Source of the DNA: Salegentibacter echinorum
GTDB lineage: Bacteria; Bacteroidota; Bacteroidia; Flavobacteriales; Flavobacteriaceae
Direction of reading: 5' to 3'
NCBI RefSeq assembly: GCF_900129445.1
Contig: NZ_FQVT01000005.1
Coordinates: 124,001 to 188,000, forward strand
Length of the DNA stretch: 64,000 bases
The first letter of the stretch is position 1, and each line of letters opens with the position of its first letter. The notes below the pieces were generated by a model. The model searched no databases and was not told the origin of the DNA. It saw only the letters and a program-made list of their open reading frames with translations. The translations under genes were made by a program, and so were the position numbers. Positions 1,832 through 50,564 of this stretch are shown one piece after another.

Positions 1832-1913
1832 GCTCGAGTGGCGGAATTGGTAGACGCGCTGGATTCAAAATCCAGTGACTTAGGTCGTGTGGGTTCGATT
1901 CCCACCTCGAGTA
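1832..1913 (+). tRNA. tRNA-Leu (anticodon CAA)
   Basis: The acceptor stem pairs GCTCGAG (1832-1838) with CTCGAGT (1906-1912, with one G-T pair), followed by discriminator A at 1913. The anticodon stem CTGGA/TCCAG holds the loop TTCAAAA with anticodon CAA. The T arm reads GTGGG-TTCGATT-CCCAC. A short variable arm (gacttaggtc) and the 82-base length fit a class II leucine tRNA. CCA is not encoded. The gene is followed by a tyrosine recombinase gene, the usual arrangement when a tRNA 3' end is an integration site. Confidence 0.95.
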
Positions 1914-1936
1914 CTTTTAACATACCAAATTATAGC

Positions 1937-1972
1937 AAAACCCCGTAAACTTCACTGTTTACGGGGTTTTTC
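1937..1972 (+). terminator. Rho-independent terminator after tRNA-Leu
   Basis: A perfect stem AAAACCCCGTAAAC / GTTTACGGGGTTTT encloses a six-base loop (ttcact), and the 3' arm ends in a T run. It lies 24 bp after the tRNA and would end its transcript before the integrase gene. Confidence 0.85.
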
Positions 1973-2151
1973 ATTTCTTACCATATCATATAATATCAAA
2001 TAATCTGGGATAAAAAGTGTCTAATTCGGTGACACTTGAGAAATTAAAAAAGGTGCACCCGAATCCACGTAAATCACTGTTAAATAAGTTTTTACAAATA
2101 TTTTCTTTCAACTTTTTGTGCTATATTTAATTAAATTTAAAAGCTAAAAGG

Positions 2152-3372
2152 ATGCAGAATCTACTATCAATTTTATTTTATGTAAGAAAAAGTAAGAATA
2201 AAAACCTTACTCACGCCACGGTTTATCTAAGAATAACCTATAAAGGAAAACGTGCAGAGGCTAGTACAATGAGAAAAGTGCCACTCTCGAAATGGAATGC
2301 TAAGGCTAACAAAATGAATGGTGCTTCAGCGGAAGCCAGACAATTAAATAGACAACTTGAAATTATAAAAAATCGTTTATACGAGATCTATCAAAAACTT
2401 CAGAATTCTGGAGAAGCGATTTCAGCTTCTCTATTAAAAGATATTTTTATAGGTAATGACGATTCTAAAAAAGGGATTCTGGAAATGTTTGAAGAGCATA
2501 ACCTAAGGATGAAAAAACTGGTAGGCAAAGATTATTCTTTTAGAACACTTCAACGTTATAAAACTTCCAAGAAACACTTAACCAATTTTATTTTAAAAAA
2601 TTATAAAACTGAGGACTACCACGTTAAAGACATTGACACCAGGCTTATCAATAGTTTTATATATTACCTCAAAACCGAAGTAAATCTCTCCCACAATTCA
2701 GCCTTAAAATATCTAGCTTATCTTAAAAAAATTGTTCGGGTAGCTGTTGCTAATGGTTGGTTGGAAAAAGACCCCTTTTATAATTTCAAGCTTAAACGTC
2801 AGGTAATTGATCGTGAGTTTCTGACTAAAGAAGAAATTATTAAAATTATGGAAAAGCAATTCTCAATCTCCAGGGTGGAACAGGTAAGAGATATTTTTCT
2901 TTTCTCCTGCTACACCGGTTTGTCTTATTCAGATGTTTCCAAGCTCACTTCCAATGATATCACAATTGGTATTGATGGCCGACAATGGATAAAGGTTAAG
3001 AGAACCAAAACAAAAACGCTTAGCAGCATTCCGCTTTTAAAAATTCCGGAAGAGATCATCCAGAAGTATAAAGATTTTGAAAATCCAAAAGGCACCTTGC
3101 TGCCTATAGTTTCAAATCAAAGAACCAATAGTTACTTAAAGGAAATCGCCGATGTTTGTAAGATTAAAAAGAATCTAACCTTTCATATGGCACGACATAC
3201 CTTTGCCACCACTGTTACCCTTTCCAACGGAGTACCCATTGAAAGCGTTAGTAAGATGCTAGGACACCGATCATTAAGAACAACCCAACACTATGCAAAA
3301 ATATTAGACGATAAGTTGAGTGAAGATATGAATACTTTAAGAACTAGGATGGCAGCCAATGAGAAAGAATAA
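2152..3372 (+). CDS. Tyrosine recombinase (integrase), IntDOT-like
   Basis: This 406-residue site-specific recombinase has the common Bacteroidota layout: an N-terminal arm-binding domain (about 1-100), a SAM-like core-binding domain (about 110-205) and a C-terminal catalytic domain (about 220-395). Visible catalytic residues are H345 and R348 (HMARH), H372 (LGHRS) and nucleophile Y381 (TTQHYAKI). The usual first arginine is replaced by S258 in TGLSYSD, a substitution also described for the CTnDOT integrase. It probably inserts and excises the adjoining element by recombining at the tRNA-Leu 3' end 240 bp upstream; the target is inferred from position. The reading frame is intact. Confidence 0.93.
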   Translation: MQNLLSILFYVRKSKNKNLTHATVYLRITYKGKRAEASTMRKVPLSKWNAKANKMNGASAEARQLNRQLEIIKNRLYEIYQKLQNSGEAISASLLKDIFIGNDDSKKGILEMFEEHNLRMKKLVGKDYSFRTLQRYKTSKKHLTNFILKNYKTEDYHVKDIDTRLINSFIYYLKTEVNLSHNSALKYLAYLKKIVRVAVANGWLEKDPFYNFKLKRQVIDREFLTKEEIIKIMEKQFSISRVEQVRDIFLFSCYTGLSYSDVSKLTSNDITIGIDGRQWIKVKRTKTKTLSSIPLLKIPEEIIQKYKDFENPKGTLLPIVSNQRTNSYLKEIADVCKIKKNLTFHMARHTFATTVTLSNGVPIESVSKMLGHRSLRTTQHYAKILDDKLSEDMNTLRTRMAANEKE

Positions 3373-3749
3373 AGTTTAGAGAATTGATATCCTTTCACAT
3401 TCTTTAATTGGTAGCTATAAATAATAAACTGTAAAGACTTAGGTTTATCATATTCAAATTCTTTGAATTGCAATCCACTATTGTCCGGTAAAGAAACAAG
3501 ATCGCTTCGCTGCAAGAAAAAAGAGAAAAGACTAAACTCTAACTAACTGAGAATCCAGCTTTTTTCATAAGTGATATTCTTCAATTAACTCTTTTTCGTA
3601 AAGATTTCTAATAGCAAGGTGGATAATTATGAAATCGCTTTTGGGCTTTGCAATAAAAGAGAACATGCTAATTAGTTATATTTTTATCGGACATCAATGA
3701 TTGCAATAGTAACATCACCTAATCTTTCATCTACGAATCACATTTTTAT
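3373..3749. other. Gap between integrase and transposase remnant
   Basis: I see no supported gene, RNA or strong hairpin here. The region probably contains the outer end of the IS4-type element, but I could not identify its terminal inverted repeats by eye. Confidence 0.4.
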
Positions 3750-4930
3750 TTAAGAAAAGAAAGCTGCATTAGAGAGTTTAAATAAGTCCAGTTGTTCTTT
3801 GTCATTTTGATTTTTTTGATATTCGGTTAAAATCTCAATTATAGGCGTTTTATCGAATACTGAGATCCCTAATATTTGTATGATTTCATAAATTGAGAGG
3901 TTGCTCTTCATTTCATTTTGACATGCGCCACAATAAGATACGTACATATAGCAACCCAGATGTGGATATTGACTGCATTTTCAGACTGTCCCAATAATTT
4001 TTTTATGGTTAAATTCTGTTTTATCCATTTGAATAAAGTCTCTATTTGCCATCTGTTACGGTAAAGTTTGGCTATCTCTAAAGCTGATACTTCATGATAG
4101 TTGGACACAAAAGTAAGCAGGATATCGTTTTGATCATCGTAATATTCAACCAGCCGTAGTGGGTCTGGATAGAGTTTACTTGATTTATAGCCGGCTAAAA
4201 AAATCGTTTTATCGCTTTTCAAGCCAAATCTAAGATCGATGTTGTAATTATGTTCAATAACGGTATAATCCATCGTAGTCTTGGCCCTGGAAACGAAAAA
4301 GGCACCCATTTCATGTATATAATGCTGCAAAATCTATATAAGCTTTATCCATAAGATATATTGCTCCCGTTACAGGAACTAATACATCCAATATATTGCT
4401 ATTGTGATATTTACCATCGGTAATCATTACAAAAGAGGGAATACTGCCTCTTAGATCCAATAAAGTGTGCATTTTTATAGCACCTCGAGAATATTTTCCT
4501 GGAGCCCAGCTAAAAAGTTTTACGCTCAAGGATATTGTTGTTGAATCTAATGCAAACACCTCATTTTTAAGGTCGAAATCGGGAATTGGAAAATCAGCGT
4601 ACATTGGCCGGACTTGCTCTATTAAATATTGACCGAAGTTTGCAAATATTTTCCAATCCCTGCGCTTATTGGCTCGTGATATACTTGATTGATTCACTCG
4701 CTTTCTGATTCCGAGATGGTGCAGTTTGTTTTGATGGGCTTTCAGGCAAGTGCAGATATCACGTAAAGAGTTTCGGGCTGTTAACTGACCAAAGAATAAT
4801 TGAATAAATTGGTTCCAACAATTAAACTCCCTGTTCCATGGTCTCCATTGTATTTGATAACGCACTTTTCAAACTCATAGCCGTTGATAAACTGCAAAAG
4901 TTGAGCGAAAATATATTTACCTGTATTCAT
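3750..4930 (-). pseudogene. IS4-family transposase, broken by three frameshifts
   Basis: Reading right to left, the protein begins at ATG 4930 (MNTGKYIFAQLLQFINGYEF), shifts frame near 4840, continues with the N-terminal domain and the first catalytic stretches (FALDSTTISL, then ITDGKYHNSN), shifts again near 4320, and resumes with MGAFFVSRAK and the C-terminal Y-(2)-R-(3)-E-(6)-K signature in YRNRWQIETLFKWIK. A third shift near 3915 separates the last 60 or so residues. The fold is an RNase H-like DDE transposase of the IS4 group. All parts align in order, so this is one decayed copy rather than several genes. It is almost certainly inactive. The frameshifts could in principle be sequencing errors, but three in one gene favour true decay. 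Confidence 0.85.
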
Positions 4931-5480: not shown

Positions 5481-6121
5481 ATGAGTACAACTAGCAAAAG
5501 CCTCTCAAGTATCCAAATGGGCGAACGTTATGGTATCCGCCAGGGCACAGCCTGGTATTTTATGCACAAAGTGCGCTCGGCAATGGAAAGCAGCAAAAAA
5601 TATCCTTTGATTTGAAAGGTTTAGTTCATGTCGATGAGTTTATCATAGGCGGGCAAGAAGAAAATGCCCCTGGTAGAAGCTACAATACCCCTAAAACCAA
5701 GGTAATAATAACAGTAGAGCTTAATGAAGAACGCAAGGTCAAACGTGTCTACGCCAAGGTAATTAACGATTATTCCGCCAAGTCATTTACTCCATTGTTC
5801 GAACAGCATATATCTGAGGAAGCAAAAGTAATTACCGACAAATGGCGGGGGTTACAGCCCATTAAAGAAAAGGTATAATATTGAGCAGGTCCTAGTAATA
5901 AAGAAAAAAATTCAAGGAACTTCATATTATCATTCACAAGATAAAATCTTGGTTGAGGACAGTTCATGCGCCTATTTCAAAACAACATGTCAAAAGGTAC
6001 CTGGATGAATATTCATTCAGGTTGAATCGATCACAGTCAAAACAAACCATTTTTCACAATAATATAAAGAGAATGATACAAGGGAAACCACGGCTACATT
6101 CCCAAATTATTAATGGTAGCT
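5481..6121 (+). pseudogene. IS1595-family transposase, frameshifted
   Basis: Three pieces in different frames together give an ISXO2-like DDE transposase of the IS1595 group. The first (from 5481) reads MSTTSKSLSSIQMGERYGI and AWYFMHKVRSAMES. The second (5612-5878) carries HVDEFIIGG with the first catalytic Asp and VITDKW with the second. The third (about 5911-6121) reads HKIKSWLRTVHAPISKQHV and RSQSKQTIFHNI, the typical C-terminal end. The zinc-ribbon N-terminus of the family is absent. Frame changes near 5600 and 5880-5910 plus the missing N-terminus make it inactive. It lies directly before the first susC gene, so insertion here may have altered that gene's promoter. Confidence 0.8.
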
Positions 6122-6452: not shown

Positions 6453-9400
6453 ATGTACTTAAAAAAAGTATTCTTTTTTATTCTAATTCTTTTCATTCAG
6501 CTCCCCTGTTTTGCTCAAAATGAATACACGCTTAGAGGAAGTGTTATTTCTGAAGAAGATAATATGCCACTACCTAGTGTAAACATTTCTAAAGTTGGAG
6601 AAGGAATTGGCGCAGTTACCGATTTTGACGGCAATTTTGAAATTATGGTTAAAAAAGGTGACACTTTATCTTTTTCTTATATAGGAAAAAAGACGGTCAA
6701 TATAGGTATTGATGCGCAAAAGACCCTGGAAGTATCAATGGAAGATTCCAATATCATGGATGAAGTTGTCGTGATTGGTTATGGTACCCAAAAGAAATCG
6801 AGCTTAACCGGTTCGGTCTCAAAATTGGAGAATGAGAACCTGGAAGAACTGCCTTACTCCAACGTAAGTAATGCCATAAAAGGTAAAATTGCTGGGGTAA
6901 GAATTCAAAATACATCTGGAGATGTTGGAGAATCACCCGATATTACTATTCGTGGATCTGGTTCCATAAGCTTAAGCTCTTCACCTTTAGTAGTTGTAGA
7001 TGGATTTCCATTTGACGATGGTTTACAATTTATAAACCCAAGCACTATAGAATCCATAGAGGTTCTTAAGGATGCTAGCTCCACGGCAATTTACGGCTCC
7101 AGGGGTGCAAATGGTGTTATTTTAATTACTACCAAAAATGGAAAACCCGGTGAGACCAAATATGAGTTTAAAACATACTCTGGTTTTAAGCAAGCTTATA
7201 AACAGGCAGATATACTGGACGTTTATGAATATTCAGACTTAGATAGGGAGAGAGACCAACTTGTAGAAAATTTTAACGCTCAGCAGGAAAGACGTGATCC
7301 TGAAATTGTGGATTATGGCTATAAAGACATAGGTAAAAGAACTATTGCAGACAATACCGGTGGAGCCACTAATTGGCAGGATGAAGCCTTAAGAAATCCA
7401 GCGCTTATAAAAAGCTATCAACTTAATATTTCGGGAGGTAATTCAAAAACTACTTATTATACCTCCGGTCAGTATATTCACGATGAAGGGCTCTTAAAAG
7501 ACAATTATCTTGAAAGAATAAATTTACAAACCAAGCTTAAGGTTAAGCTTAACAAAGACGTGGATCTTAGTCTCAATTTAAGACCTTCTTACGAAAGAAA
7601 AAGAAGACCGGCCATTAATTTTCAGGACACCTATCGTTATGAAACCTGGATTCCTGTATATCATAATGCCTACACTTCAGAACTCACGGGAGAGCCAATT
7701 GGCTCTTATTCCCACAATCCTCAATATAGAAACCTCAATTTTGATTTTGTAGATTCGGAAGGAAATCCCCAAAACACAGGAAATATGAGTAATTTGTGGG
7801 GTTCTTCCAATTATAATCCTATTTCCTCTCAACTTGAGACCAAACGATTTGAATATAATTACAGGTTCTTTGCCAATGGTTATTTAGACTGGGATATTAG
7901 TGATCATCTTAGTTTTAGGACTTCTTCAGGGATATATTTTCATTATAGGACCCGGGAAGAGTTTGAAGGGAAACTGGGGGATAAAAAGAATCAAAATACT
8001 GGTGTAGAAGACAACCGGGTAAGGTTAAAGTATATTTTTGAAAACACCTTAAATTACGAAAATGAGTTTAATGGGCACGGTATAAACGCCCTGGCGGGGA
8101 TCACTTATGAAAATCAGCAATATAAATACACCAATATTGAAGGTTTTGGCTATCCCGTAGAAAATGTAACGACGCTTAATGGTGCTTCAATAATTAATTT
8201 GGAAGAAACTTATACCAGGAAGTATGAAAATTCTTTGGCATCTTTCCTTGGTCGTGTAAATTACGATTATAAAGGAAAATACCTTTTATCGCTTGTAGGA
8301 CGTATGGATGGTTATTCAAAATTTGGCCCAGACAATAAATATGGTTTTTTTCCATCGGCATCTGCCGGTTGGAATGTTTCCAGGGAAAATTTTTGGAAAA
8401 ACAACGTAGGTTTTATCAACCGGTTTAAGATAAGAACAAGTGTAGGAAAATCGGGTAGCAATAATATAAGATTAGAGAATTATCCCGCCAGAAACCTATT
8501 GTTTGAAGCTAATTACTCTTTAGGGAACAGCTTGCAAACAGGCTTGGGTGATACCGGTTCTTTTTTAGGCAATCGCGGCATAGGTTGGGAAACAACCATA
8601 GAATATGACACGGGTATAGAATTAGGCTTTTTTGACAACAAACTTAGTTTGGTAGCCGATTACTATTATAAAATTTCGGAAGACCTAATTCTAAGACAAC
8701 CCGTTTCATATACTACCGGTTTCGATGAATACTTTAACAATATTGGAAAAGTTTTAAATGAAGGTTTGGAATTTACACTTTCCACCAATATCGAAAATCA
8801 AGATTTTTCCTGGCAGGGAAATGCGAATATTTCCTTCAACAGCAACAAATTAATTTCTTTTGGAGGTTCTGAACGTGTAATTTCAAACGGAGAAAGAAGC
8901 GACCAGTACATTACCAGAGTGGGAGATCCCTACATTCAGTTTTACGGATATAAGACCAATGGAGTATGGCAAAATCAGGAAGAAATAGACAATAACCCCA
9001 GTGGGTCTGTAGATAGGCCTGGTGGTTTAAGACGGGTGGATATTAATGATGATGGTATTATTAATGCGAATGATCGAACTGTAATTGGTGACCCTTTTCC
9101 AGATTATACCTGGGGCTTCACCAATTTCTTTAAATATAAAAACTTCGATTTAAATCTTACATTCCAGGGCTCTCAAGGAGCAGATGTAGTGTATGGACTT
9201 GCTTATTACCTGGAAATTGCGAGAAACCAAAGAGAGTTTGTAGAAGGACAATGGTTTAACCCTAATTTCCCCGCTTCTAAACCAAAAGAAAGGACCGGTG
9301 TTCCATTTTTAGAAACCGATTATACCGTGCAGGATGCTTCCTATATTTCCCTTAGAGAAGTTAGCCTGGGCTATAATTTCCCAAAATCCCTGGTTGAAAA

Positions 9401-9587
9401 TCTTGGGATAGATAATTTAAGAATTTACGCCCTGGGACAAAACCTAATCTATCTTACTTCAGATGATTATACAGGACTTAACCCAGAGGCTTTACGTGAT
9501 CTTAATAATCCGCTAATTACAGGATACCAAAGGGGAGTTACTCCTATCCAGGAACAATTTACCCTGGGAGTTAATCTAAATTTTTAA
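6453..9587 (+). CDS. SusC-like TonB-dependent outer-membrane receptor (first block)
   Basis: This 1044-residue outer-membrane transporter imports oligosaccharides with its SusD partner, using TonB energy. A signal peptide ends at FAQ (residues 20-22). A carboxypeptidase-regulatory-like domain follows (about 25-98), then the TonB-box region DEVVVIGYGTQKK (about 103-115), a plug domain (about 120-230, with VVVDGFPF and the STAIYGSRGANGVILITTK signature) and a 22-strand barrel ending in NLNF. Length is normal. It opens a co-oriented cluster with susD (1 bp apart), a PL6 lyase and a surface lipoprotein, so the ligand is probably an unsaturated uronate oligomer; this is inferred from neighbours. 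No dedicated regulator adjoins it. Confidence 0.95.
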   Translation: MYLKKVFFFILILFIQLPCFAQNEYTLRGSVISEEDNMPLPSVNISKVGEGIGAVTDFDGNFEIMVKKGDTLSFSYIGKKTVNIGIDAQKTLEVSMEDSNIMDEVVVIGYGTQKKSSLTGSVSKLENENLEELPYSNVSNAIKGKIAGVRIQNTSGDVGESPDITIRGSGSISLSSSPLVVVDGFPFDDGLQFINPSTIESIEVLKDASSTAIYGSRGANGVILITTKNGKPGETKYEFKTYSGFKQAYKQADILDVYEYSDLDRERDQLVENFNAQQERRDPEIVDYGYKDIGKRTIADNTGGATNWQDEALRNPALIKSYQLNISGGNSKTTYYTSGQYIHDEGLLKDNYLERINLQTKLKVKLNKDVDLSLNLRPSYERKRRPAINFQDTYRYETWIPVYHNAYTSELTGEPIGSYSHNPQYRNLNFDFVDSEGNPQNTGNMSNLWGSSNYNPISSQLETKRFEYNYRFFANGYLDWDISDHLSFRTSSGIYFHYRTREEFEGKLGDKKNQNTGVEDNRVRLKYIFENTLNYENEFNGHGINALAGITYENQQYKYTNIEGFGYPVENVTTLNGASIINLEETYTRKYENSLASFLGRVNYDYKGKYLLSLVGRMDGYSKFGPDNKYGFFPSASAGWNVSRENFWKNNVGFINRFKIRTSVGKSGSNNIRLENYPARNLLFEANYSLGNSLQTGLGDTGSFLGNRGIGWETTIEYDTGIELGFFDNKLSLVADYYYKISEDLILRQPVSYTTGFDEYFNNIGKVLNEGLEFTLSTNIENQDFSWQGNANISFNSNKLISFGGSERVISNGERSDQYITRVGDPYIQFYGYKTNGVWQNQEEIDNNPSGSVDRPGGLRRVDINDDGIINANDRTVIGDPFPDYTWGFTNFFKYKNFDLNLTFQGSQGADVVYGLAYYLEIARNQREFVEGQWFNPNFPASKPKERTGVPFLETDYTVQDASYISLREVSLGYNFPKSLVENLGIDNLRIYALGQNLIYLTSDDYTGLNPEALRDLNNPLITGYQRGVTPIQEQFTLGVNLNF

Positions 9588-9588
9588 T

Positions 9589-11118
9589 ATGATCGCTATG
9601 ATGAAAATAGTTAAAAAATATAGAAAAATGACAATGAAAATTGATATAAGCAGAACAAAATTGGCGTTTTTGTTACCTTTAGTGCTGTTGTTTACAATGA
9701 ATTCCTGTGATGACAAATTAGACATAAACCCTGAATCCTTTATTTCTTCAGATGCTTTTTATAAGAATGAAGAAGAAGTGAACCTGGCCGTTATCGCTAT
9801 TTATAATAGTTTGTATGAGATGATGGATTTAGAATGGAATGTCACCGAAATACGATCAGACAATACATTTTTTAGACCAGACGGCACACCAGATTCTGAT
9901 ACAGATAGGTTTACCTTAGACCGATTTACATTAACGCCTACCAACAGGTTATCTAGCGACTATTACCGGGCCTGCTATTCTACCATAGCCCTTGCAAATA
10001 GGGTTTTAGAAAACCTCGACGTTGTTGAAAATACCGACACCCGAGATCAATATGAAGGAGAGGCCCGCTTTTTAAGGGCTCACGCCTATTTTAATTTAGT
10101 TAGACTTTATGGACCGTTGGTTATCGTAGATGAATCAATTAGTGGCGAAGAAGCTTTAACACTGGATAGATCACCAGAAATGGAAGTTTATGATTTTATA
10201 CTTGAAGACCTAAAAATCGCTAAAGAAAACCTCCCTGAATCTTTTGAAAATCAACAAACCGGGAGGGCTACAAAATGGGCAGCACAGGGAATCCTGGCAA
10301 AAGTTTATCTCACTTTAGAAGATTATAATTCCTCTAAAACAGAGCTCGCAGGAATAATTAATGAAGGTCCGTTTGAACTTCTAGAGAATTATGATGACGT
10401 TTTTGACGTGGATAATGAGTACAATTCTGAAATAATCTTTGCTGTACGCTATCAAAGTGGAAGTGTAGGCTTAGGCGCACCTTTCGCCAATTATTTTGCA
10501 CCCTTACAAACGGGGGATCTAATTGTAAAAGGCGATGGCCGTTCCTATAATGTTCCTACTGAAAGTATTTCCCAGGCTTACCCGGTAAATGGAGAGCGAA
10601 AAGAACCCTCTATGGCCGATTTTTGGTTAAACTCAAATGATGAGCCAGAATATGATAAACATGTTGTAAAATACAACTCAGATTTTAGTGTGTATAATGA
10701 TTCTGGAGTTGACTGGCCTGTTTTAAGATATGCCGATGTATTATTAATGATGAGCAAAACAACCCTGGAGACCGAAGGTATAGCTCCTTCTCTGGAATTA
10801 TTAAATAAGGTAAGGGAAAGAGCCGGAGCTACTCCTTACGATGTAGCTGACATTAACTCTTCTTTCGCTATGAAATTAGCTATTGAAGAAGAACGCAGGT
10901 TGGAATTTGCATTTGAAAACCAGCGCTGGTTTGATTTGGTTCGTACCGATAGGGCGGTTACTGTAATTAATCAGCATTTTAATAGAGAACCAGTTTACAA
11001 TGATCCAAACAGTCCTGAGAAAGGCGCTGAGCCTATTCAGGAATGGCAATTATTGCTACCTATTCCGCAATATGAACTTGACCTGAATCCTAACATTGCT
11101 CAAAACATTGGTTATTAA
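9589..11118 (+). CDS. SusD-like surface glycan-binding lipoprotein (first block)
   Basis: This SusD-family protein (RagB/SusD) forms the lid of the neighbouring SusC channel and binds glycan at the cell surface. A lipobox with Cys40 (LLFTMNSC) marks it as a lipoprotein. TPR-like helices follow (for example EGEARFLRAHAYFNLVRLYG), and the C-terminal family pattern EERRLEFAFENQRWFDLVRT leads to the end at LNPNIAQNIGY. The longest frame starts at 9589, but the N-terminus before the signal peptide is long; ATG codons at 9628 or 9634 (MTMKIDISRTKLAFLL) are better starts. It lies 1 bp after susC and overlaps the next gene by one base. Confidence 0.93.
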   Translation: MIAMMKIVKKYRKMTMKIDISRTKLAFLLPLVLLFTMNSCDDKLDINPESFISSDAFYKNEEEVNLAVIAIYNSLYEMMDLEWNVTEIRSDNTFFRPDGTPDSDTDRFTLDRFTLTPTNRLSSDYYRACYSTIALANRVLENLDVVENTDTRDQYEGEARFLRAHAYFNLVRLYGPLVIVDESISGEEALTLDRSPEMEVYDFILEDLKIAKENLPESFENQQTGRATKWAAQGILAKVYLTLEDYNSSKTELAGIINEGPFELLENYDDVFDVDNEYNSEIIFAVRYQSGSVGLGAPFANYFAPLQTGDLIVKGDGRSYNVPTESISQAYPVNGERKEPSMADFWLNSNDEPEYDKHVVKYNSDFSVYNDSGVDWPVLRYADVLLMMSKTTLETEGIAPSLELLNKVRERAGATPYDVADINSSFAMKLAIEEERRLEFAFENQRWFDLVRTDRAVTVINQHFNREPVYNDPNSPEKGAEPIQEWQLLLPIPQYELDLNPNIAQNIGY

Positions 11119-15000: not shown

Positions 15001-15018
15001 GCCTTCACAATTATTAAT

Positions 15019-15053
15019 AAAAACTGCCTCAATAAGCTGGGGCAGTTTTTTGT
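15019..15053 (+). terminator. Terminator of the first PUL operon
   Basis: AAAACTGCC pairs with GGCAGTTTT around a loop of about 12 bases and is followed by further T residues. It lies 19 bp after the IPT/TIG lipoprotein gene. Confidence 0.75.
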
Positions 15054-15272: not shown

Positions 15273-15336
15273 CCAGGATATTCTCAATCCATTGCTAAAC
15301 CAAAGTCAAATAAATTATATGATAGATGCCTGAAAT

Positions 15337-34085: not shown

Positions 34086-34096
34086 ATAGACAAATT

Positions 34097-36154: not shown

Positions 36155-36160
36155 TTTATC

Positions 36161-42175: not shown

Positions 42176-42181
42176 TCGCTC

Positions 42182-43582
42182 CTAAAATTCAAAATATTCT
42201 TTCGCGTTATTATAACAAATGTCACTAACAATTTTCCCCAGCCAGGCTTCATCTGCCGGTAATTCCCCATTCGCTACATCTGTTCCTATTAGGTTACAAA
42301 GAATCCTCCTGAAGTATTCGTGTCGTGGAAAAGACAGAAAACTTCGGGAATCGGTTAGCATTCCTACAAAGCAACTTAAAACCCCTAAATTAGAGAGCGT
42401 GTTTAACTGATCTTCCATCCCGTCTTTTTGGTCCATATACCACCAGGCAGAACCATATTGCACCTTTCCTTTTACAACCCCATCATTAAAATTACCCGCC
42501 ATAGTCGCAAAAACCGCATTATCTGCTGGGTTAACATTGTAAATAATGGTCTTGGGAAGTTGGTTCGAACTATCCAGTTCATTTAAAAATCCGCTTAGAC
42601 CTCGTGCCTGTGAAAAATCTCCAATAGAATCGAAGCCCGTATCTGGTCCCAATTTGTTCAACAAGCGTTTATTATTATTTCTTATAGGACCAAGATGTAA
42701 CTGCTGTACCCAGCCTTTCTTTTCATAAAGTTTGCCAAGAAAAAGCATGGTTTTATACTTAAAGTACCGGGCTTCTTCTAAAGTTAAGGGTTGTTTGTCC
42801 TTTAATTTCTGAAAAAGTTTTTTAGGATCATATTTATTTGAATTGAAATAATGAAGCTGTTCGAAGCCGTGATCTGAAAGCTTGCATCCGTGCTCTGCAA
42901 AGTAATCTACCCTATTTCCCAAGGCAGTTAAGAGATCATCATAATTATTAATAAGCATATTGGAAGCTGTTTCCAGCTGTTCTAAATACCTTAGGTAAGC
43001 TGAAACATCTTCAACGGCAAAAGCCTTATCTGGTCTAAAAGTAGGGAGCACCTTAACTCCTTTGGGGTTTTGCTTTATTTGCTTATGATATTCCAGGGAA
43101 TCTATGGGATCATCTGTAGTGCATAATGATTCCACATTCCTATTCTCGAGTAAACCTGTAGTACTATGCGAATCCTGTTGCAGGAGTTCATTTGTTTTCT
43201 CATATATTTTTTCTGCATTTTTCCCAGATAATAATTCCTGAATATTAAAATAGCGCAGTAACTCTAAATGGGTCCAGTGATACAAAGGATTGCGCATGGT
43301 ATAAGGCACCGCTTCTGCCCATTTTAGAAACTTTTTTTTATCTGAAGCCTTGCCGGTAATATACTTTTCATCTACACCCAAAGCCCTCATCGCACGCCAC
43401 TTATAATGATCACCGGCTAACCAAACTTCAGTAATGTTGTTAAACTGCCTATTTTCAGCAATATCCTTTGGAGGTAAGTGATTGTGATAATCTATAATGG
43501 GTAAGTCTTTAGCATAATTATGATAAATTTTTTTCGCGAATTCATTTTTTAATAAAAAATCTTTCTGAATAAATGTTTCCAT
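42182..43582 (-). CDS. uxaC: Glucuronate isomerase
   Basis: UxaC interconverts D-glucuronate and D-fructuronate (and galacturonate/tagaturonate) in the cytoplasm. The 466-residue protein matches the E. coli length of 470. Family patterns visible are PIIDYHNHLPPKDIAEN (metal-binding HxH), WAEAVPYTMRNPLYHWTHLELLRYF, TTDDPIDSLEYH, LPTFRPDKA and the C-terminal FLSFPRHEYFRRILCN. It starts 39 bp after KDPG aldolase. The presence of this gene with uxuA and the SDR shows that intact glucuronate, not only unsaturated uronate, is an expected breakdown product. Confidence 0.97.
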   Translation of the reverse strand: METFIQKDFLLKNEFAKKIYHNYAKDLPIIDYHNHLPPKDIAENRQFNNITEVWLAGDHYKWRAMRALGVDEKYITGKASDKKKFLKWAEAVPYTMRNPLYHWTHLELLRYFNIQELLSGKNAEKIYEKTNELLQQDSHSTTGLLENRNVESLCTTDDPIDSLEYHKQIKQNPKGVKVLPTFRPDKAFAVEDVSAYLRYLEQLETASNMLINNYDDLLTALGNRVDYFAEHGCKLSDHGFEQLHYFNSNKYDPKKLFQKLKDKQPLTLEEARYFKYKTMLFLGKLYEKKGWVQQLHLGPIRNNNKRLLNKLGPDTGFDSIGDFSQARGLSGFLNELDSSNQLPKTIIYNVNPADNAVFATMAGNFNDGVVKGKVQYGSAWWYMDQKDGMEDQLNTLSNLGVLSCFVGMLTDSRSFLSFPRHEYFRRILCNLIGTDVANGELPADEAWLGKIVSDICYNNAKEYFEF

Positions 43583-43621
43583 AAATAAAATATTTTCTGC
43601 GGAATGACCTTTTAATTATTG

Positions 43622-44290
43622 TTATTCCTGTATTTGCTTTATAAGCTTTATTGTTTGTTCCACCTTTTTCTTTAAACCCGGATAATCTTTTTTCTCCAAA
43701 ATCTCCCTGGAAATTAACTTTGAACCAATACCAACACAGGTTACTCCTGCATCAAACCAGGACCTTAAATTATCTTCAGCGAGGGTCACCCCGCCTGTGG
43801 GCATTATCCTCGTCCAGGGTTGTGGACCTTTTGCTGCCTTAACGAATTCTGGACCGTAGATAGCTCCCGGGAATAATTTAACTATTTCGCAACCCAATTC
43901 TTCAGCTACGTTGATTTCGGTTAAAGAACCACAACCAGGAGACCAAAGCACCTTACGACGATTACAAACTTTCGCTATATCTTCCCTAAACGTCGGGGTA
44001 ACAATAAAGTTTGCCCCCATTTGCATATATAATGAAGCTGCTGCGGCATCTGTAATAGAACCTACCCCAAGTGCCATTCCGGGAAGCTTGTTTTGAGCGT
44101 ATTTATTTAACTCTGAAAAAACCTCGTGAGCAAAATCACCTCTTGCCGTAAACTCCAATAATCTCGCTCCTCCGTCATAACAAGCCTTTAGAACTTCTTT
44201 TCCCACTTCCACATTAGCGTGGTAAAAAAGTGGGACAAGTCCCGTCTCTTGCATCAGTTGAAATACTTCGTTTCTTGTAAATTGTGCCAT
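43622..44290 (-). CDS. eda: 2-keto-3-deoxy-6-phosphogluconate aldolase (KDPG/KHG aldolase)
   Basis: This 222-residue class I aldolase splits KDPG into pyruvate and glyceraldehyde-3-phosphate, the final step of the local pathway. E46 and R50 (LLEFTARGDF) and the Schiff-base Lys138 (IVKLFPG) are present, followed by MPTGGV. Length agrees with E. coli Eda (213). It lies 119 bp after the KDG kinase gene and 39 bp before uxaC. All needed residues are intact. Confidence 0.95.
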   Translation of the reverse strand: MAQFTRNEVFQLMQETGLVPLFYHANVEVGKEVLKACYDGGARLLEFTARGDFAHEVFSELNKYAQNKLPGMALGVGSITDAAAASLYMQMGANFIVTPTFREDIAKVCNRRKVLWSPGCGSLTEINVAEELGCEIVKLFPGAIYGPEFVKAAKGPQPWTRIMPTGGVTLAEDNLRSWFDAGVTCVGIGSKLISREILEKKDYPGLKKKVEQTIKLIKQIQE

Positions 44291-44409
44291 TTTTTAATTG
44301 GTTTATTAAATAAGAAAAGCTCGTTTTAAAAATTAATTTTCAAGCTTTAAGTTCAAAGAATATTTTTATTTATCTGGAGAAGCAGGATTAAAGTTATGAT
44401 TTTGAACCA

Positions 44410-45432
44410 CTAACGATTAACTTTTCCTAAAGCATCACCCGATGCCATTTTTTCCAACTCTTCTAAAGTAATCAAATTTACATCTCCCGTTATTGTATGT
44501 TTTAAACAACAAGCAGCGACTGCTAAATTTAAAATACGCTGCTTATCCCCTGGCGTATCTATTAAACCATACATCAACCCGCCCATAAAAGCATCTCCCG
44601 TGCCTACACGATCAACTACTGGAGAAACATCCCTAATAGCTGTTTTATAGATATTTTCCCTATCATAGAGTATTCCTCCAATCCTTTGATGGGAGGCACT
44701 TATGGAATATCTCAATGTAGTCGCCATTTGTTCGAGATTGGGACATAATTCGAAGAATTTATCATAAACCTCAGGTAAAGATTCAGGCTTTTGGTAATCT
44801 GGATTCATTGCGGGCCTACCAAACAAGAAGAAAGCGGTGTCCAAATCCCCTAAAATCAGGTTACTATATTTTAATAGCTCCGGCATCACCTCCTTTGGCT
44901 CCTTACCATATTTCCAAAGCTTAGATCTGTAATTAAGATCTGTGGAGATTTTGAGCCCCATTTCACTGGCTGTCTTTACCGCTTCTAAACAGGTTTCTGC
45001 CGCAGTTTTTGAAACTGCAGGGGTTAAGCCGCTCCAATGAAAGTGGGAAGCATCTTTAAAAGCAGCTTTCCAATTTACCATTCCGGGTTTAATTTCAGAA
45101 AAAGCACTATGAGCACGATCATAAATTACACTACCTCCCCGGCAGCCAATACCATTTTCTAAAAAGTAAAGTCCCAGGCGCTTGCCACCGGAAAGAACAT
45201 ATTCTGTTCCTACCTTATTTTTTCGCATTTCCGCTAAACAAATTTCCCCGAATTCATTTTCTGGTAAACGCGTTACAAATTCCGTTTTAACTCCATAATT
45301 CGACAATGCAACGGCGACATTATATTCCCCTCCACCATAATTTGTTTTTAAATGATTTGCTTGAGAAAAACGTAAATTTTCATTGGTAGAAAGCCGCAAC
45401 ATAATCTCACCAAAAGTGATTACTTTGTCCAT
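44410..45432 (-). CDS. kdgK: 2-keto-3-deoxygluconate kinase (PfkB family)
   Basis: This enzyme phosphorylates KDG to KDPG with ATP. The PfkB-family signatures are GGGEYNVAVALSNYG near the N-terminus and DRVGTGDAFMGGLMYG (catalytic Asp) near the C-terminus. I start it at ATG 45432 (MDKVITFGEIMLRLS, 340 residues) because the additional 19 codons up to 45489 are not family-like. It is the first gene of the minus-strand operon kdgK-eda-uxaC-Gfo/Idh; its promoter must lie in the 307 bp before the PL14-like gene. I saw no clear consensus there. Confidence 0.92.
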   Translation of the reverse strand: MDKVITFGEIMLRLSTNENLRFSQANHLKTNYGGGEYNVAVALSNYGVKTEFVTRLPENEFGEICLAEMRKNKVGTEYVLSGGKRLGLYFLENGIGCRGGSVIYDRAHSAFSEIKPGMVNWKAAFKDASHFHWSGLTPAVSKTAAETCLEAVKTASEMGLKISTDLNYRSKLWKYGKEPKEVMPELLKYSNLILGDLDTAFFLFGRPAMNPDYQKPESLPEVYDKFFELCPNLEQMATTLRYSISASHQRIGGILYDRENIYKTAIRDVSPVVDRVGTGDAFMGGLMYGLIDTPGDKQRILNLAVAACCLKHTITGDVNLITLEELEKMASGDALGKVNR

Positions 45433-45739
45433 AAATGTGTTCAATAAACGATTAATGATGATCTCTTCAGAAAAAAAATGGAGATCCACTTTTAATTATA
45501 CTCAAATATAAAGATTAGTTTTACCGCAATAGTACACTTATGGTACATTTTGATTCAATCCGCTAACAGACAGAAAACTATAACAGTAAAACTCACCACT
45601 ACAGCTTCAATATTGCAAAAATCATTACTAAAAAATTAATTCTCTTATGGCTTCTTTCCCGGACTATTGACTACCTATGATTGGATTATTTTATTCCTTA
45701 GAGTTATTAGTTTTAAAAAATTAATTAAAAGTATTAATT

Positions 45740-46672
45740 ATGAGAAACTTCAATAAACTTAGTGATCTTACTAAAAGAAACTTTTTCCCTGTGCTTATTA
45801 GCCTCATCTCTTTCACTTCTATCGGCTGTCAGTCTGAAGATTTAAGCCTAGATGATAATATGGAAGACACCTTATACAATGAACCCGATCCTGAAAACGA
45901 TACAACAACTAAATCTAGCATCAACGATTCCAGATGGGTTGGTTTTAACACGGGCAATACTTCAATCAATTCAGAAACTTCGGCAGAAAATATTTTCGAT
46001 AATAAAATTAGTGGTTGGGATACTGGAGTTGCCAAAATTGAAAGTAATAAATTAAAAATCACTCTTCCCGAAAGAGCAGGAACTTCAAACGGCATGGAAT
46101 GTAGGCTGGACGTAACTGATAATCCCAAATATCAATTATACTTTGATGTTAAGTTTCAGGATAACTTCGATTTTTCCAGGGGAGGAAAATTGGGTTTTGG
46201 TTTTGCAATTGGCGATGGCGTTACCGGCGGGCGCTGGGAGGAAGCAGTAAATGAAAATAAAGGAGGTAGCTTCAGGGTTATGTGGCGTGGCGATAGTGCT
46301 GAGCCTTATCTTTTCCCTTATGTATATTATAAAGACATGCAAGGCTTCAATGGTAACGATTTTAAACATAAAAAATTCAATATAACCGACAATAGGACCT
46401 ACAGAGTACGTCTAACCATTAAAACCAATACCAGCGCATCTAAAGCCAATGGTTATGCTAAAATGGAAGTTAAGCAAAGTGGAGAAAGCAATTATACAAA
46501 AGTTTGGGAAACCTCATCCATTCGTTGGTCGGGGAATAGTTCGGCCAGCAAACGAAATATAAAAACGTTCTATTTTAGCACATTTAGAGGTGGTAAAACG
46601 AACGAATGGGATGGAAATAACGGCTCTCAAAGCATCTATTTCGATAATTTAAAATGGTATCAAATAGATTAA
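45740..46672 (+). CDS. PL14-like lipoprotein, candidate glucuronan/alginate lyase
   Basis: This 310-residue lipoprotein (lipobox Cys30, TSIGC) carries a jelly-roll domain whose pattern GGKLGFGFAIGDGVTGGRWEE, then GGSFRVMWRGDSAEPYLFPYVYY, is the one I associate with PL14-type lyases. The region 50-80 is a linker rich in Ser, Thr and Asn. PL14 members degrade alginate or beta-1,4-glucuronan. The catalytic set is not certain by eye. The gene stands alone, divergent from kdgK, 250-300 bp upstream. Family membership is fairly likely; activity and exact substrate are inferred. Confidence 0.7.
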   Translation: MRNFNKLSDLTKRNFFPVLISLISFTSIGCQSEDLSLDDNMEDTLYNEPDPENDTTTKSSINDSRWVGFNTGNTSINSETSAENIFDNKISGWDTGVAKIESNKLKITLPERAGTSNGMECRLDVTDNPKYQLYFDVKFQDNFDFSRGGKLGFGFAIGDGVTGGRWEEAVNENKGGSFRVMWRGDSAEPYLFPYVYYKDMQGFNGNDFKHKKFNITDNRTYRVRLTIKTNTSASKANGYAKMEVKQSGESNYTKVWETSSIRWSGNSSASKRNIKTFYFSTFRGGKTNEWDGNNGSQSIYFDNLKWYQID

Positions 46673-48353: not shown

Positions 48354-48686
48354 ATGGGCACTTTAAAAAATCAAGTACAGTTAATCGGAAACGTGGGCGA
48401 AGCCCCACAAATTACTAACCTGGATAGCGGTAAAAAAGTAGTCCGCTTTTCACTGGCCACCAATGAGGTTTATAAAAACGCCAAGGGAGAAAAAGTTCAA
48501 AAAACAGAATGGCACACCATTGTAGCCTGGAACAAGACTGCCGAAATTATTGAGAAATATGCCGGTAAGGGGAAGGAAATTGGAATTAGCGGAAAACTAA
48601 AATCCCACAGTTACGAGAAGGACGGGGTTACACGCTATATCACAGAGGTAGAAGCAAACGAAATCCTGCTTTTGGGCACTAAATAA
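48354..48686 (+). CDS. ssb: Single-stranded DNA-binding protein (element-borne)
   Basis: This 110-residue OB-fold protein coats single-stranded DNA. Family patterns are LKNQVQLIGNVGEAP, RFSLATNE, KTEWHTIVAWNKTAEIIEKYAGKGKEIGISGKLKSH and the terminal strand EVEANEILLLG. It is shorter than chromosomal SSB because it lacks the acidic C-terminal tail that recruits partner proteins, a common state of plasmid and conjugative-element copies. It precedes a radC-like gene, with a hairpin between. Probably protects transferred single strands. Confidence 0.93.
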   Translation: MGTLKNQVQLIGNVGEAPQITNLDSGKKVVRFSLATNEVYKNAKGEKVQKTEWHTIVAWNKTAEIIEKYAGKGKEIGISGKLKSHSYEKDGVTRYITEVEANEILLLGTK

Positions 48687-48706
48687 GCCTTTTATTTTTT
48701 AAAAAT

Positions 48707-48736
48707 GAGGGCGTTTCGGTCGAATGTCACGCCCTC
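48707..48736 (+). terminator. Hairpin between ssb and the radC-like gene
   Basis: GAGGGCGT (48707-48714) pairs with ACGCCCTC (48729-48736) around a 14-base loop. Only a weak T-rich tail follows (tattatt), so it may attenuate transcription rather than end it fully. Its presence over the in-frame ATG at 48705 argues for the later start of the next gene. Confidence 0.5.
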
Positions 48737-48764
48737 TATTATTAACCCTTTAATCAAGCTAACA

Positions 48765-49214
48765 ATGAAAACCAAAGTTAATGAAATAGCCATAAGTTAC
48801 AACGGAAGTATTCATGTGAATTTGCTTCCTAAAATAACCTGTTCCCAAAGTGCCGCAGATCTAGCTTTTGGGCAGTGGAACAAAAACAGTATTGAATTGC
48901 ACGAAACTTTTAAAATTATGCTGCTTAACAATGCCAACCGGGTAAAAGGTATTTATGAATTATCAACCGGCGGAATCACCGGTACTTTAGTCGATGTTCG
49001 TATCTTATTTGCCGTGGTTTTAAAGTCTGTCACGACCGCTTTGATATTACTACATAACCATCCCTCAGGCACCTTAAAGCCCAGTGAAGCCGATAAACGC
49101 CTCACCCAAAAAATAAAGAAAGCCGGGGAACTTTTTGATATTAAAGTTTTAGATCATTTGATTATTTCCCCGGGTGGGCGGTATTACAGTTTTGCCGATG
49201 AAGGCATGCTGTAA
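48765..49214 (+). CDS. RadC-family JAB-domain protein
   Basis: This 149-residue protein (from ATG 48765, MKTKVNEIAISYNG) is a short RadC/JAMM-type protein. The metal-binding signature is ALILLHNHPSGTLKPSEAD, with two His and an Asp, and the upstream Glu is in SIELHETFKIMLL. RadC-like proteins of this size are typical of Bacteroidota mobile elements; their biochemical role is not established. The frame extends back to 48705, but the extra 20 residues overlap a hairpin and do not look family-like. A terminator follows. Confidence 0.9.
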   Translation: MKTKVNEIAISYNGSIHVNLLPKITCSQSAADLAFGQWNKNSIELHETFKIMLLNNANRVKGIYELSTGGITGTLVDVRILFAVVLKSVTTALILLHNHPSGTLKPSEADKRLTQKIKKAGELFDIKVLDHLIISPGGRYYSFADEGML

Positions 49215-49233
49215 AGCCTAATTCGTTTAATCC

Positions 49234-49266
49234 AAAAGACCTTTGAATTTTCAGAGGTCTTTTTTT
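49234..49266 (+). terminator. Terminator after the radC-like gene
   Basis: AAAAGACCTTTGA pairs imperfectly with TCAGAGGTCTTTTTT around a short AT-rich loop, with a run of T residues at the end. It lies 20 bp after the stop codon. Confidence 0.75.
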
Positions 49267-49443
49267 ATGATTGATTTCAAAAAAATTCCTATCTTTAGTT
49301 AGCTGAAATTCAGCTTTTAATTTTACACAGGGATCCTATTTTTGACTTTCGCTGATACCCTGCATTTCAATTATTAACATACCGGAAATTCATTTCCCTA
49401 AATTGGCAATCCGCTTTGATGAGCGGTATTGTACGAAATTTTT

Positions 49444-49515
49444 GCCACGAGTACTCGTGGCGAAAAGGAGTAGCAAGAGGGTAACGGGCAGAGCCGCGTT
49501 ACATACTCCTTTTCG
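49444..49515. other. Candidate oriT / nested inverted repeats
   Basis: An 18-bp perfect palindrome GCCACGAGTACTCGTGGC (49444-49461) is followed by inverted-repeat arms CGAAAAGGAGTA (49461-49472) and TACTCCTTTTCG (49504-49515) around 31 bp that include GCAAGAGGGTAACGGGCAGA. The structure lies 122 bp upstream of a mobilisation-protein gene, where transfer origins usually sit. The nick site is not identified. The rest of the gap 49267-49637 shows no gene. Confidence 0.5.
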
Positions 49516-49637
49516 TTTTTAAGAAGCTGATTACCAGCGACTTAAAATCATTGTAGTTTATTGACCTTCAGCCAATTGCGACAAATGCGCTGCCAACGTC
49601 TATTTTTAGGGAAGAATTTGCGACAAATCAGCGAATT

Positions 49638-49979
49638 ATGAACTCATTTAGCGGCATTAGGTTTAAAAAAGAAACGGCCAAACGGTTCCAGGAATTCTCC
49701 AAAAAACACTTTAATTCCCACACCGAGGCCCTGGCCACCATGCTCGATTTTTTCTTCTACAACGAGATCTCCCCTCGGGAAAGATTGGGGCCAACCGGCA
49801 GGACTATTGAAGCCAATTTAAAGAAACGCATTAATGCCGTAATTGCCATTATGCGGGATATGGAAAAGACCCAAACTAAACCCACCGTGGCAATGATTGC
49901 TTCCCTTTTTCAACTAGAGGAACGAAAAAACAAACCGCTCATTGTAGAGAAAAAATTTATAAAGCCTAATAAAAAATAG
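49638..49979 (+). CDS. BfmA/BtgA-type mobilisation protein
   Basis: This 113-residue protein begins FSGIRFKKETAKRFQEFSKK and continues with SHTEALATMLDFFFYNEISP, the pattern of BfmA/BtgA-family accessory mobilisation proteins from Bacteroidota transposons and plasmids. The N-terminal half looks like a ribbon-helix-helix DNA-binding unit that would bind near oriT and help a relaxase. No relaxase gene is present beside it, so transfer would need one supplied in trans or encoded elsewhere. It lies downstream of the candidate oriT and 10 bp before the next gene. Confidence 0.8.
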   Translation: MNSFSGIRFKKETAKRFQEFSKKHFNSHTEALATMLDFFFYNEISPRERLGPTGRTIEANLKKRINAVIAIMRDMEKTQTKPTVAMIASLFQLEERKNKPLIVEKKFIKPNKK

Positions 49980-49989
49980 ACTTAATATT

Positions 49990-50313
49990 ATGGAAAAAAT
50001 AAATTACATCAGACATCTTAATGGCATATTTGAACAGTTTTCAAAAGATCAACGAATTACAGTTGTACACCGGAGCCTGTACTTAGCGATTTTTGAAATT
50101 TGGAACCGAAAGTTTTTTCAGGAAGTATTTATGATCAACCGACAACAAGTAATGGGGTTAGCCAAAATACGCTCCAGAACTACTTATCATAAACATTTGA
50201 ATGAATTGCATAATTTCGGGTATCTAATCTATTTCCCTTCTCATGATATCCTTAAAGGTTCTAAAATTAGAATGTATTATTTTGGAAAAGAGCTTGACCA
50301 GGAAATGAACTAG
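49990..50313 (+). CDS. Small hypothetical protein with a winged-helix-like pattern
   Basis: I do not recognise this 107-residue protein by name. The sequence HRSLYLAIFEIWNRKFF, then INRQQVMGLAKIRSRTTYHKHLNELHNFGYL and KGSKIRMYYF, has the look of a winged helix as in replication-initiation or plasmid regulatory proteins: a recognition-helix region (SRTTYHKHLNEL) followed by a beta wing. It is 10 bp after the mobilisation gene and probably in the same operon. Proteins of this type are common on Bacteroidota mobile elements; a DNA-binding role is inferred. Confidence 0.6.
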   Translation: MEKINYIRHLNGIFEQFSKDQRITVVHRSLYLAIFEIWNRKFFQEVFMINRQQVMGLAKIRSRTTYHKHLNELHNFGYLIYFPSHDILKGSKIRMYYFGKELDQEMN

Positions 50314-50520
50314 AGTGTCCCAAATATGATTAGGTGGTTGACCATTATATGGTCTCTTTTTAAAACTAATAATAAACAATAAAAACATAAACGGCAGGCA
50401 TGGCTTTTTTTTAAATATTTTTATTCAAAATTTTTTGATGAAAATTAACCGGTAAGCACTATAAACAGTACGATACAAGCTTATGATTTAAAAAGAAAGT
50501 TCTATCACACCGTCCCAAAA

Positions 50521-50564
50521 TTGTACAAGTGCTGTACTGGTAGTGTACTATTATTGTACCAGTT
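50521..50564. repeat. Four 11-bp-phased TGTAC units
   Basis: TGTAC occurs at 50522, 50533, 50544 and 50555, exactly 11 bp apart, in the units TTGTACAAGTG, CTGTACTGGTA, GTGTACTATTA and TTGTACCAGTT. The first contains the palindrome TTGTACAA. Arms ACTGGTA (50536-50542) and TACCAGT (50557-50563) could also form a hairpin. It lies in the 724 bp gap (50314-51037) between two convergent genes; no other feature was recognised there apart from an inverted repeat AAGCGAA/TTCGCTT near 50973-50996. Confidence 0.6.

What the first reader, a model, noticed from the sequence alone, without database searches (positions are those of the whole stretch)
1832..50564. A uronate-polymer pathway of about 40 kb bounded by an integrase at tRNA-Leu and a mobilisation module
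A tyrosine recombinase lies next to the tRNA-Leu 3' end, and about 46 kb away are ssb, a radC-like gene, a candidate oriT and a BfmA/BtgA-type gene. Between them is a full pathway from polymer to pyruvate. The flanks (prs/rplY on one side, a GH2/GH63 operon on the other) look like ordinary chromosome. This would be a complete transferable glycan-utilisation island. No relaxase was found and I could not see the second att copy by eye, so it may be mobilisable rather than self-transferring, or no longer mobile.
Basis: partly seen in the sequence, partly recalled or inferred. Interest (0 to 1): 0.75.

Follow-up and report, generated by a model that had tools for sequence, protein, structure and literature searches.

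The report
88-kb sugar-use island at tRNA-Leu
In a flavobacterium, a block of genes for eating acidic algal-type sugars sits inside an 88,000-base island that inserted at a leucine tRNA gene; the island is nearly twice as long as first thought, its edges can be placed to the base, and it appears to descend from a mobile element that has lost its own transfer genes.

Summary
The left edge was read correctly; the right edge was not. The 15-nt end of tRNA-Leu(CAA) recurs once in the genome, at C36:213,893-213,907 (window coordinate 89,893-89,907, outside the window). Both ends carry the same ~20-nt motif at fixed distances (+103, -77), a layout shared by all six of 15 genus genomes that have a full-length integrase (8.9, 30.2, 37.4 and 88.0 kb where one contig spans the element). 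So the element is 87,993 bp. It holds the uronate-polymer PUL and catabolic block, the GH2/GH63 operon taken for chromosome, and a defence cluster. G002 and five named Christiangramia and Gillisia loci carry primase-like, MobC and MobA-relaxase genes behind the same integrase: a family of integrative mobilizable elements. The window's copy has lost them; its ssb-radC-bfmA module is a truncated second cassette. The searched 20 kb of PUL DNA has no match over 268 nt in 14 relatives. Relatives without the integrase show the site without the element (G007 beside G006), but this genome's own right flank is rearranged. New member of a known kind. Bounds 0.95; loss of self-transfer 0.85; excision untested.

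The parts
1832..1914 (+). tRNA-Leu(CAA), integration target, intact
1900..1914 (+). left att core, 15 nt; the only other copy in the genome is at C36:213,893-213,907 (window coordinate 89,893-89,907, outside the window)
1935..1972 (+). terminator-like hairpin of the left end, in place of the tRNA's own terminator
   Evidence: -21.7 kcal/mol
2017..2036 (+). left arm motif (starts 103 nt after att); partner at window coordinate 89,816
2152..3372 (+). tyrosine recombinase, 406 aa, K286 H345 R348 H372 Y381 present, first Arg position is Ser258
3908..4865 (-). broken DDE_Tnp_1/DUF4372 transposase (two frames), where relatives carry mobilisation genes
5612..5878 (+). IS1595-type transposase fragment
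6453..11118 (+). SusC/SusD pair 1
11118..13517 (+). PL6 lyase; best solved relatives BcAlyPL6 and AlyGC
13534..16146 (+). TIG-domain protein and PF14099 polysaccharide lyase
16772..17959 (-). Alginate_lyase-domain protein (PL38-like; that label is recalled)
18140..20575 (-). GH2; best solved relatives 6d1p and 6d7j (a beta-glucuronidase)
20590..21792 (-). GH88-family protein (unsaturated glucuronyl hydrolase type)
22000..26543 (-). SusD/SusC pair 2
26905..30999 (-). hybrid two-component regulator with AraC-type output
31065..32786 (-). pectate-lyase-fold protein, weak BT3328-family match (below cutoff)
33258..36955 (+). UxuB-like SDR, UxuA, KduI, KduD/gluconate-5-dehydrogenase-like SDR
37118..38353 (+). 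DUF4861 protein (BT3233-like, below cutoff)
38350..41103 (+). TRAP transporter DctP-DctQ-DctM
41186..45489 (-). Gfo/Idh oxidoreductase, UxaC, KDPG aldolase, PfkB kinase
45740..46672 (+). PL14-like lyase
48354..49979 (+). ssb-radC-bfmA, truncated mobilisation cassette (85-90% identical copy at C28:16,385-18,647)
49215..49637 (+). conserved noncoding region, candidate oriT
51038..59154 (-). GH2 / APH-aminotransferase III / MGH1-GH63-like operon, inside the element
59434..61202 (+). ECF sigma and FecR anti-sigma; a SusC-like ORF follows from about 61.7 kb and a SusD-like ORF lies past the window end (read from similarity and translation, not Pfam-scanned)

Best explanation
The finding lies in an 87,993-bp element integrated by site-specific recombination into the 3' end of tRNA-Leu(CAA), from window 1,900 to window coordinate 89,907 (25.9 kb beyond the window). 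The integrase at the left end recombined a 15-nt core, leaving the tRNA whole and giving it a new terminator; motifs starting 103 nt inside the left att and 77 nt before the right att mark the ends. The element belongs to a family of integrative mobilizable elements (int, VapE-like/DUF5906, CHC2-Toprim, MobC, MobA relaxase) that uses this tRNA in several flavobacterial genera. In this genome the mobilisation genes are gone, with transposase debris in their place. Cargo has accumulated: a uronate-polymer PUL with its catabolic pathway, a remnant of a second mobilisation cassette, a further PUL, and a defence block. It now acts as a resident genomic island that may still excise but lacks its own transfer genes. 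Shown from sequence: bounds, shared ends, gene content, genes not found. Inferred: integrase activity, loss of mobility, substrate and pathway flow.
For: Only two copies of the att pattern in the whole genome, same strand and contig; control pattern 0 in all 15 genomes. The repeat is exactly 15 nt. Arm motif (<=4 mismatches) at two places in 187 kb of the contig, 0.1 expected from 10 base shuffles. With <=6 mismatches it starts at -77 from the second att in all 6 genomes with a full-length integrase (G000, G002, G004, G005, G006, G014) and at +103 or +104 in the 9 left ends that lead into this integrase. About 90 nt beside the right att conserved between G000, G002 and G004. Full IME gene set in G002 and in 5 of the 7 named loci L142-L148; Pfam confirms relaxase and NikA-like in G002 and L143, the two checked. 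None of it in the window's element. In the genus the DNA outside G006's right att is collinear, at 90-94% over about 18 kb, with the DNA behind the bare tRNA-Leu of G007, which has no integrase: a near-empty site for a sister element; the right-att contigs of G005 and G014 reach the same backbone block. PUL DNA of 6.44-26.4 kb has no match over 268 nt in the other 14 genus genomes.
Against: The right flank of this genome is not the genus backbone: the block found 1.9-31.8 kb right of tRNA-Leu or right att in G003, G005, G006, G007, G010, G013 and G014 lies here on another contig, C29:276-290.7 kb, and the 57 kb right of the att on C36 lacks it, so the chromosome is rearranged and no exact empty site is shown for the 88-kb element. 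Composition does not separate island from flanks. The 88 kb may be a fusion of elements whose inner ends were lost. G011 has diverged uronate catabolic genes 41-48 kb from its tRNA-Leu without this integrase. Not every ORF of the element was scanned.
Confidence: 0.9

Rival explanations
1. One reading: integrase at one end, the ssb-radC-bfmA module at the other, with ordinary chromosome after 50.6 kb.
For: The mobilisation module is real; the GH2 of the next operon has homologues in G005 (77%) and G003 (67%).
Against: No att copy or arm motif near 50 kb; both occur at 89.8-89.9 kb. In G005 and G003 the GH2 homologue is on a different contig from tRNA-Leu.
Confidence: 0.03
2. A composite: two or more tRNA-Leu elements inserted in tandem and fused after loss of inner ends, so that today's outer ends come from different integrations.
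For: Tandem arrays are visible in relatives: a left-end motif follows the right att in G004 and G014, and G009 has another insert in front of its integrase element. The element is 2.4 to 9.9 times longer than those of G006, G002 and G004, holds a foreign mobilisation remnant, and its right flank is not the genus backbone.
Against: No internal att or arm motif remains.
Confidence: 0.3
3. The island is still mobilisable in trans: its oriT-like stretch is acted on by the DUF5712 protein and TraG-like coupling protein encoded at C28:13.7-16.3 kb, and it excises by its own integrase.
For: radC, the noncoding stretch and bfmA are about 90% identical to the C28 copy, which keeps DUF5712 and a TrwB/TraG-like protein; the integrase is full-length with its catalytic residues.
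Against: oriT function is a guess from conservation; DUF5712 as relaxase is recalled, not tested; no T4SS was looked for genome-wide; no excisionase identified.
Confidence: 0.2

Closest known systems
Integrative mobilizable elements of Bacteroidota (classes in ImmeDB, PMC6907783; abstract and sections 13 and 18 read)
   Same: Tyrosine integrase, relaxase in the relatives, PUL cargo: the paper reports 47 PULs with SusC and SusD on gut MGEs
   Different: Flavobacteriaceae rather than gut species; tRNA-Leu(CAA) site with defined end motifs; the window's copy has no relaxase
Same-integrase elements in Christiangramia sediminis, Gillisia hiemivivida, G. marina, Salinimicrobium marinum (L143, L144, L146, L142)
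   Same: Integrase 69-75% identical, about 240 nt behind tRNA-Leu(CAA), left arm motif
   Different: L143, L144 and L146 keep the mobilisation genes; L142 shows none in the 10 kb read; their right ends were not fetched
BfmA/BtgA mobilisation cassettes (NF041200)
   Same: ssb, radC, bfmA order and the noncoding stretch
   Different: DUF5712 follows bfmA in 17 of the 19 best other loci; here it is gone, as in L106, which like the window has a small HTH-like gene instead
Nuclease-dead Cas12f, PDB 9n9c/9n9m
   Same: The 160-aa fragment at window coordinate 69.1-69.6 kb belongs to this family
   Different: Only a C-terminal piece with three guide-RNA-like repeats; sigma gene not found on C36 beside it

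Membership tests
tRNA-borne genomic island | integrase beside a tRNA 3' end | tested here: met
tRNA-borne genomic island | direct repeat of the tRNA end at the far border | tested here: met
tRNA-borne genomic island | variable presence at the site in relatives | tested here: met
   integrase, whole or damaged, in 8 of 14 relatives (in G009 22 kb behind the tRNA); not found in 6 over the 20-60 kb read
tRNA-borne genomic island | exact empty site with the same right flank | tested here: inconclusive
   G007 is a near-empty site for the G006 element; none for the 88-kb element, whose right flank is rearranged
tRNA-borne genomic island | atypical composition | tested here: not met
Integrative mobilizable element | own relaxase | tested here: not met
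   none at E<=0.01 with MobA and DUF5712 queries over C36:84,001-270,798; present in G002 and L143-L147
Integrative mobilizable element | functional oriT | not testable with these tools
   conserved noncoding stretch only
Integrative conjugative element | T4SS genes | tested here: inconclusive
   no T4SS family among the 40 window proteins scanned (one search lists 58 ORFs of 80 aa or more) or the right-end proteins; some right-end ORFs were not scanned
PUL | SusC/SusD pair with CAZymes and regulator | tested here: met
PUL | growth on the substrate | not testable with these tools
   substrate inferred only

The most novel reading that the evidence does not exclude
A flavobacterial family of tRNA-Leu(CAA) elements, defined by one integrase clade and fixed end motifs, is a standing route by which genomes swap whole glycan pathways, defence systems and RNA-guided sigma-factor modules, and the 88-kb copy can still leave and be carried by the BfmA-type cassette elsewhere in the same genome.
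Probability: 0.2. Interest if true: 0.65.

Novelty: new member of a known kind. Interest (0 to 1): 0.48.

Why it matters
How flavobacteria gain and lose glycan pathways is debated; one recent study of Flagellimonas argues for vertical descent of alginate loci (PMC12323373, abstract read). Here a complete polymer-to-pyruvate pathway, whose PUL part was not found in the rest of the sampled genus, sits inside an element with base-exact ends and a known integrase clade. The end motifs allow such islands to be called in other genomes by a simple pattern, and their excision to be tested by PCR.

Tried and rejected
Att search inside the window only: nothing, which led to the contig beyond it. Composition as border evidence: uninformative. 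Remnants of the IME mobilisation genes between 3.37 and 6.45 kb: none credible (best such hit mobC at E 0.86). G005 has about 3.2 kb similar to C36 7.4-10.9 kb right of the att, but inverted. Guide targets for the Cas12f-like array within the fetched regions: no convincing match. The Cas12f-like model folded poorly (mean pLDDT 48), so the family call rests on the sequence profile more than on Foldseek.

Papers. dCas12f with sigma factor: searches (1 of 1 listed; 3 of 3; 2 of 2) listed none whose title or abstract start is about it; a review, PMC12857756, holds all three terms and was not opened. tRNA-Leu or PUL islands of this kind: 2 of 2 listed; 10 of 10; 12 of 15; 8 of 43; listings seen, only PMC6907783 opened from them. 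Alginate as sole substrate: not concluded, because PL38 members are reported to act on alginate, glucuronan or hyaluronate/chondroitin (PMC13027841, passages read), and KduI/UxaC point to glucuronate-type products (recalled pathway knowledge).
Full report
What was checked. The window is C36:124,001-188,000 of a 3.96-Mb draft genome of 40 contigs; its genus is not named by the tools. ARAGORN and Rfam place tRNA-Leu(CAA) at 1832-1914, and Pfam calls the 406-aa ORF at 2152-3372 a tyrosine recombinase with Arm-DNA-bind_5, SAM_5 and Phage_integrase domains. K286, H345, R348, H372 and Y381 are present; the first arginine position is a serine, and is serine or alanine in all 15 rows compared. IntDOT-type enzymes share that trait by recall, and the catalytic labels are recalled too.

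The right border. Nothing in the window repeats the tRNA end. In the contig beyond it, the last 15 nt of the tRNA recur at window coordinate 89,893-89,907. A scan of 15 whole genomes of the genus with TCCCRYCTCGAGYAC gave 22 matches in 14 genomes (none in G012) and no control matches. The window's genome has exactly two: the tRNA and this copy, on one strand of one contig. The repeat does not extend by a single base either way, giving 87,993 bp with one att copy. Joining tRNA and right flank gives a tRNA followed, 9 nt on, by a predicted hairpin (-14.6 kcal/mol) and T-run; the left end of the element supplies a different one (-21.7).

Shared ends. Upstream of the right att, G000, G002 and G004 share about 90 nt, including a motif also found inside the left end. 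Allowing 4 mismatches, the motif occurs at two places in 187 kb of C36, 2017 and 89,816, where 10 base shuffles give 0.1; at that stringency it misses the left ends of G005 and G014. Allowing 6, it starts 77 nt before the second att in all 6 genomes with a full-length integrase, and 103 or 104 nt after the att in the 9 left ends that lead into this integrase; the second att of G004 and G014 is also followed by one at +103, a sign of tandem elements. Where one contig spans the element the sizes are 8.9 kb (G004), 30.2 kb (G002), 37.4 kb (G006) and 88.0 kb (G000). In G005 and G014 the second att is on another contig. G001 and G008, whose integrase is cut or broken, have no second att. G003 and G009 have a second att without the right arm, so other elements also seem to use this tRNA.

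The site in relatives. Of the 14 relatives, five have a full-length orthologue behind tRNA-Leu (G002, G004, G005, G006, G014), three a damaged one (G001, G008, and G009 22 kb on), and six none in the 20-60 kb read. Outside G006's right att the DNA is collinear with that behind the bare tRNA-Leu of G007 (94% over 5.5 kb, 90% over 12.4 kb), starting 1.7 and 1.0 kb on. The right-att contigs of G005 and G014 reach the same block. So the family's insertions do split tRNA-Leu from a conserved backbone. In the window's genome this backbone block is on C29:276-290.7 kb instead, and the 57 kb right of the att on C36 lacks it. The chromosome has been rearranged here, or more accessory DNA follows; I cannot tell which. 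This is the weakest point of the reading.

Integrase kin. In genome contigs the best 80 of 198 loci were kept. Seven are 67-75% identical and the rest 45% or less. Six of the seven lie directly behind tRNA-Leu(CAA); L147 has none called, but a 59-nt tRNA end. In a tree of 84 integrases (2 of 86 dropped as too short) the 12 tRNA-Leu rows plus L147 form one clade with support 100/99. Over all target labels, 'none' included, the tree needs 26 changes against 54.4 in shuffles, none of 200 as low. Target and lineage go together, though not perfectly: tRNA-Arg(ACG) needs 11 changes, and the tool warned of long branches.

What the family was. G002 and the named loci L143-L147 (Christiangramia and Gillisia) carry, behind the integrase, a VapE-like/DUF5906 protein, a CHC2-Toprim protein, a NikA/MobC-like protein and a MobA relaxase (Pfam on G002 and L143). 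G004 and G001 keep part of it; L142 and L148 show none (L148 is a 6-kb contig). G005, G006 and G014 show none of it in the stretches read, so loss is not special to the window. The window has broken transposases there and no trace of the set. I therefore read the element as a decayed, enlarged IME.

The mobilisation module. ssb, radC and bfmA at 48.35-49.98 kb match a cassette at C28:16.4-18.6 kb of the same genome at 85-90%. There it continues into DUF5712 and a TrwB/TraG-like protein. Of the 19 best other loci, 17 have DUF5712 behind bfmA; L118 shows no bfmA, and L106 has, like the window, an HTH-like gene instead. The noncoding 49.2-49.64 kb stretch is conserved over a 19-row alignment (L109, a near-duplicate, and L118 left out), which fits an oriT but does not prove one. 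Matches to parts of this module occur in 232 of 299 family genomes, own included, at E<=0.001, many of them short.

Cargo. The first PUL has two SusC/SusD pairs, PL6, PF14099, PL38-like and PL14-like lyases, GH2 and GH88 enzymes and a hybrid regulator. Catabolism includes UxaC, UxuB-like, UxuA, KduI, a KduD/gluconate-5-dehydrogenase-like SDR, a PfkB kinase, KDPG aldolase and a TRAP transporter. By recalled pathway knowledge this takes glucuronate and unsaturated uronates to pyruvate. PL6 matches 70 of 299 family genomes, own included; the best other match is 45% identical over nearly the whole length, partial ones reach 52% (only two other genus members were in that draw, both without a match). 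DNA of 6.44-26.4 kb has no match over 268 nt in the other 14 genus genomes; proteins too diverged for blastn are not excluded. Catabolic homologues occur in 11 of those 14 at 64-77% DNA identity, and the window's genome has only this copy at E<=1e-20. They lie on other contigs than tRNA-Leu, or over 180 kb away in G008, except in G011, where one cluster is 41-48 kb from tRNA-Leu, without this integrase and in another order; G012 could not be placed. The GH2/GH63-like operon and a third, SusC/SusD-like pair with ECF sigma and FecR follow. Then come HipA, a type I restriction system and other PADLOC matches up to the right att.

Verdict. The island is real, larger, and of a recognisable mobile family. 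Its present mobility is open. It is a new member of a known kind with unusually clean ends.

Noticed in passing
C36:193,104-193,586 (window coordinate 69,104-69,586) and repeats at 68.5-69.1 kb: C-terminal fragment of a nuclease-dead Cas12f (a profile of 16 relatives hits PDB 9n9c at 6e-208) with three guide-RNA-like repeats. Full-length copies with a sigma-factor gene upstream lie inside the tRNA-Leu elements of G002 and G006; 22 full-length copies in 10 of 15 genus genomes. That such pairs drive RNA-guided transcription is recalled.
   Followed up: partly
L077 and L078 (window coordinate 67-89.7 kb): Defence block: HipA, PDC-M40B-like protein, type I restriction M, S and R genes, PDC-M64 proteins, AAA/DUF4143 ATPase.
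   Followed up: partly
G000:C28:13,665-18,498: Complete ssb-DUF6876-radC-bfmA-DUF5712-TraG-like cassette, 85-90% identical to the window's truncated one.
   Followed up: partly
G000:C29:276,000-290,743: Genus backbone block that in seven relatives lies 1.9-31.8 kb right of tRNA-Leu or of the right att; here it is on another contig, so the chromosome is rearranged.
   Followed up: partly
window 16,277-16,579: Repeat with 13 partial copies of 78-92% identity elsewhere in the same genome.
   Followed up: no
window 46,829-47,122 and on to about 47.3 kb: Piece of an NAD-binding (homoserine dehydrogenase-type domain) protein, apparently a broken gene.
   Followed up: no
tRNA targets of L142-L221: Integrases of this wider family sit behind tRNA-Leu, Arg, Asp, Lys, Pro or Ser, and the target clusters strongly on the tree.
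   Followed up: yes
G003:C7:341,919 and G009:C17:133,532: Second att copies without the right arm motif: other elements seem to use the same tRNA-Leu.
   Followed up: no
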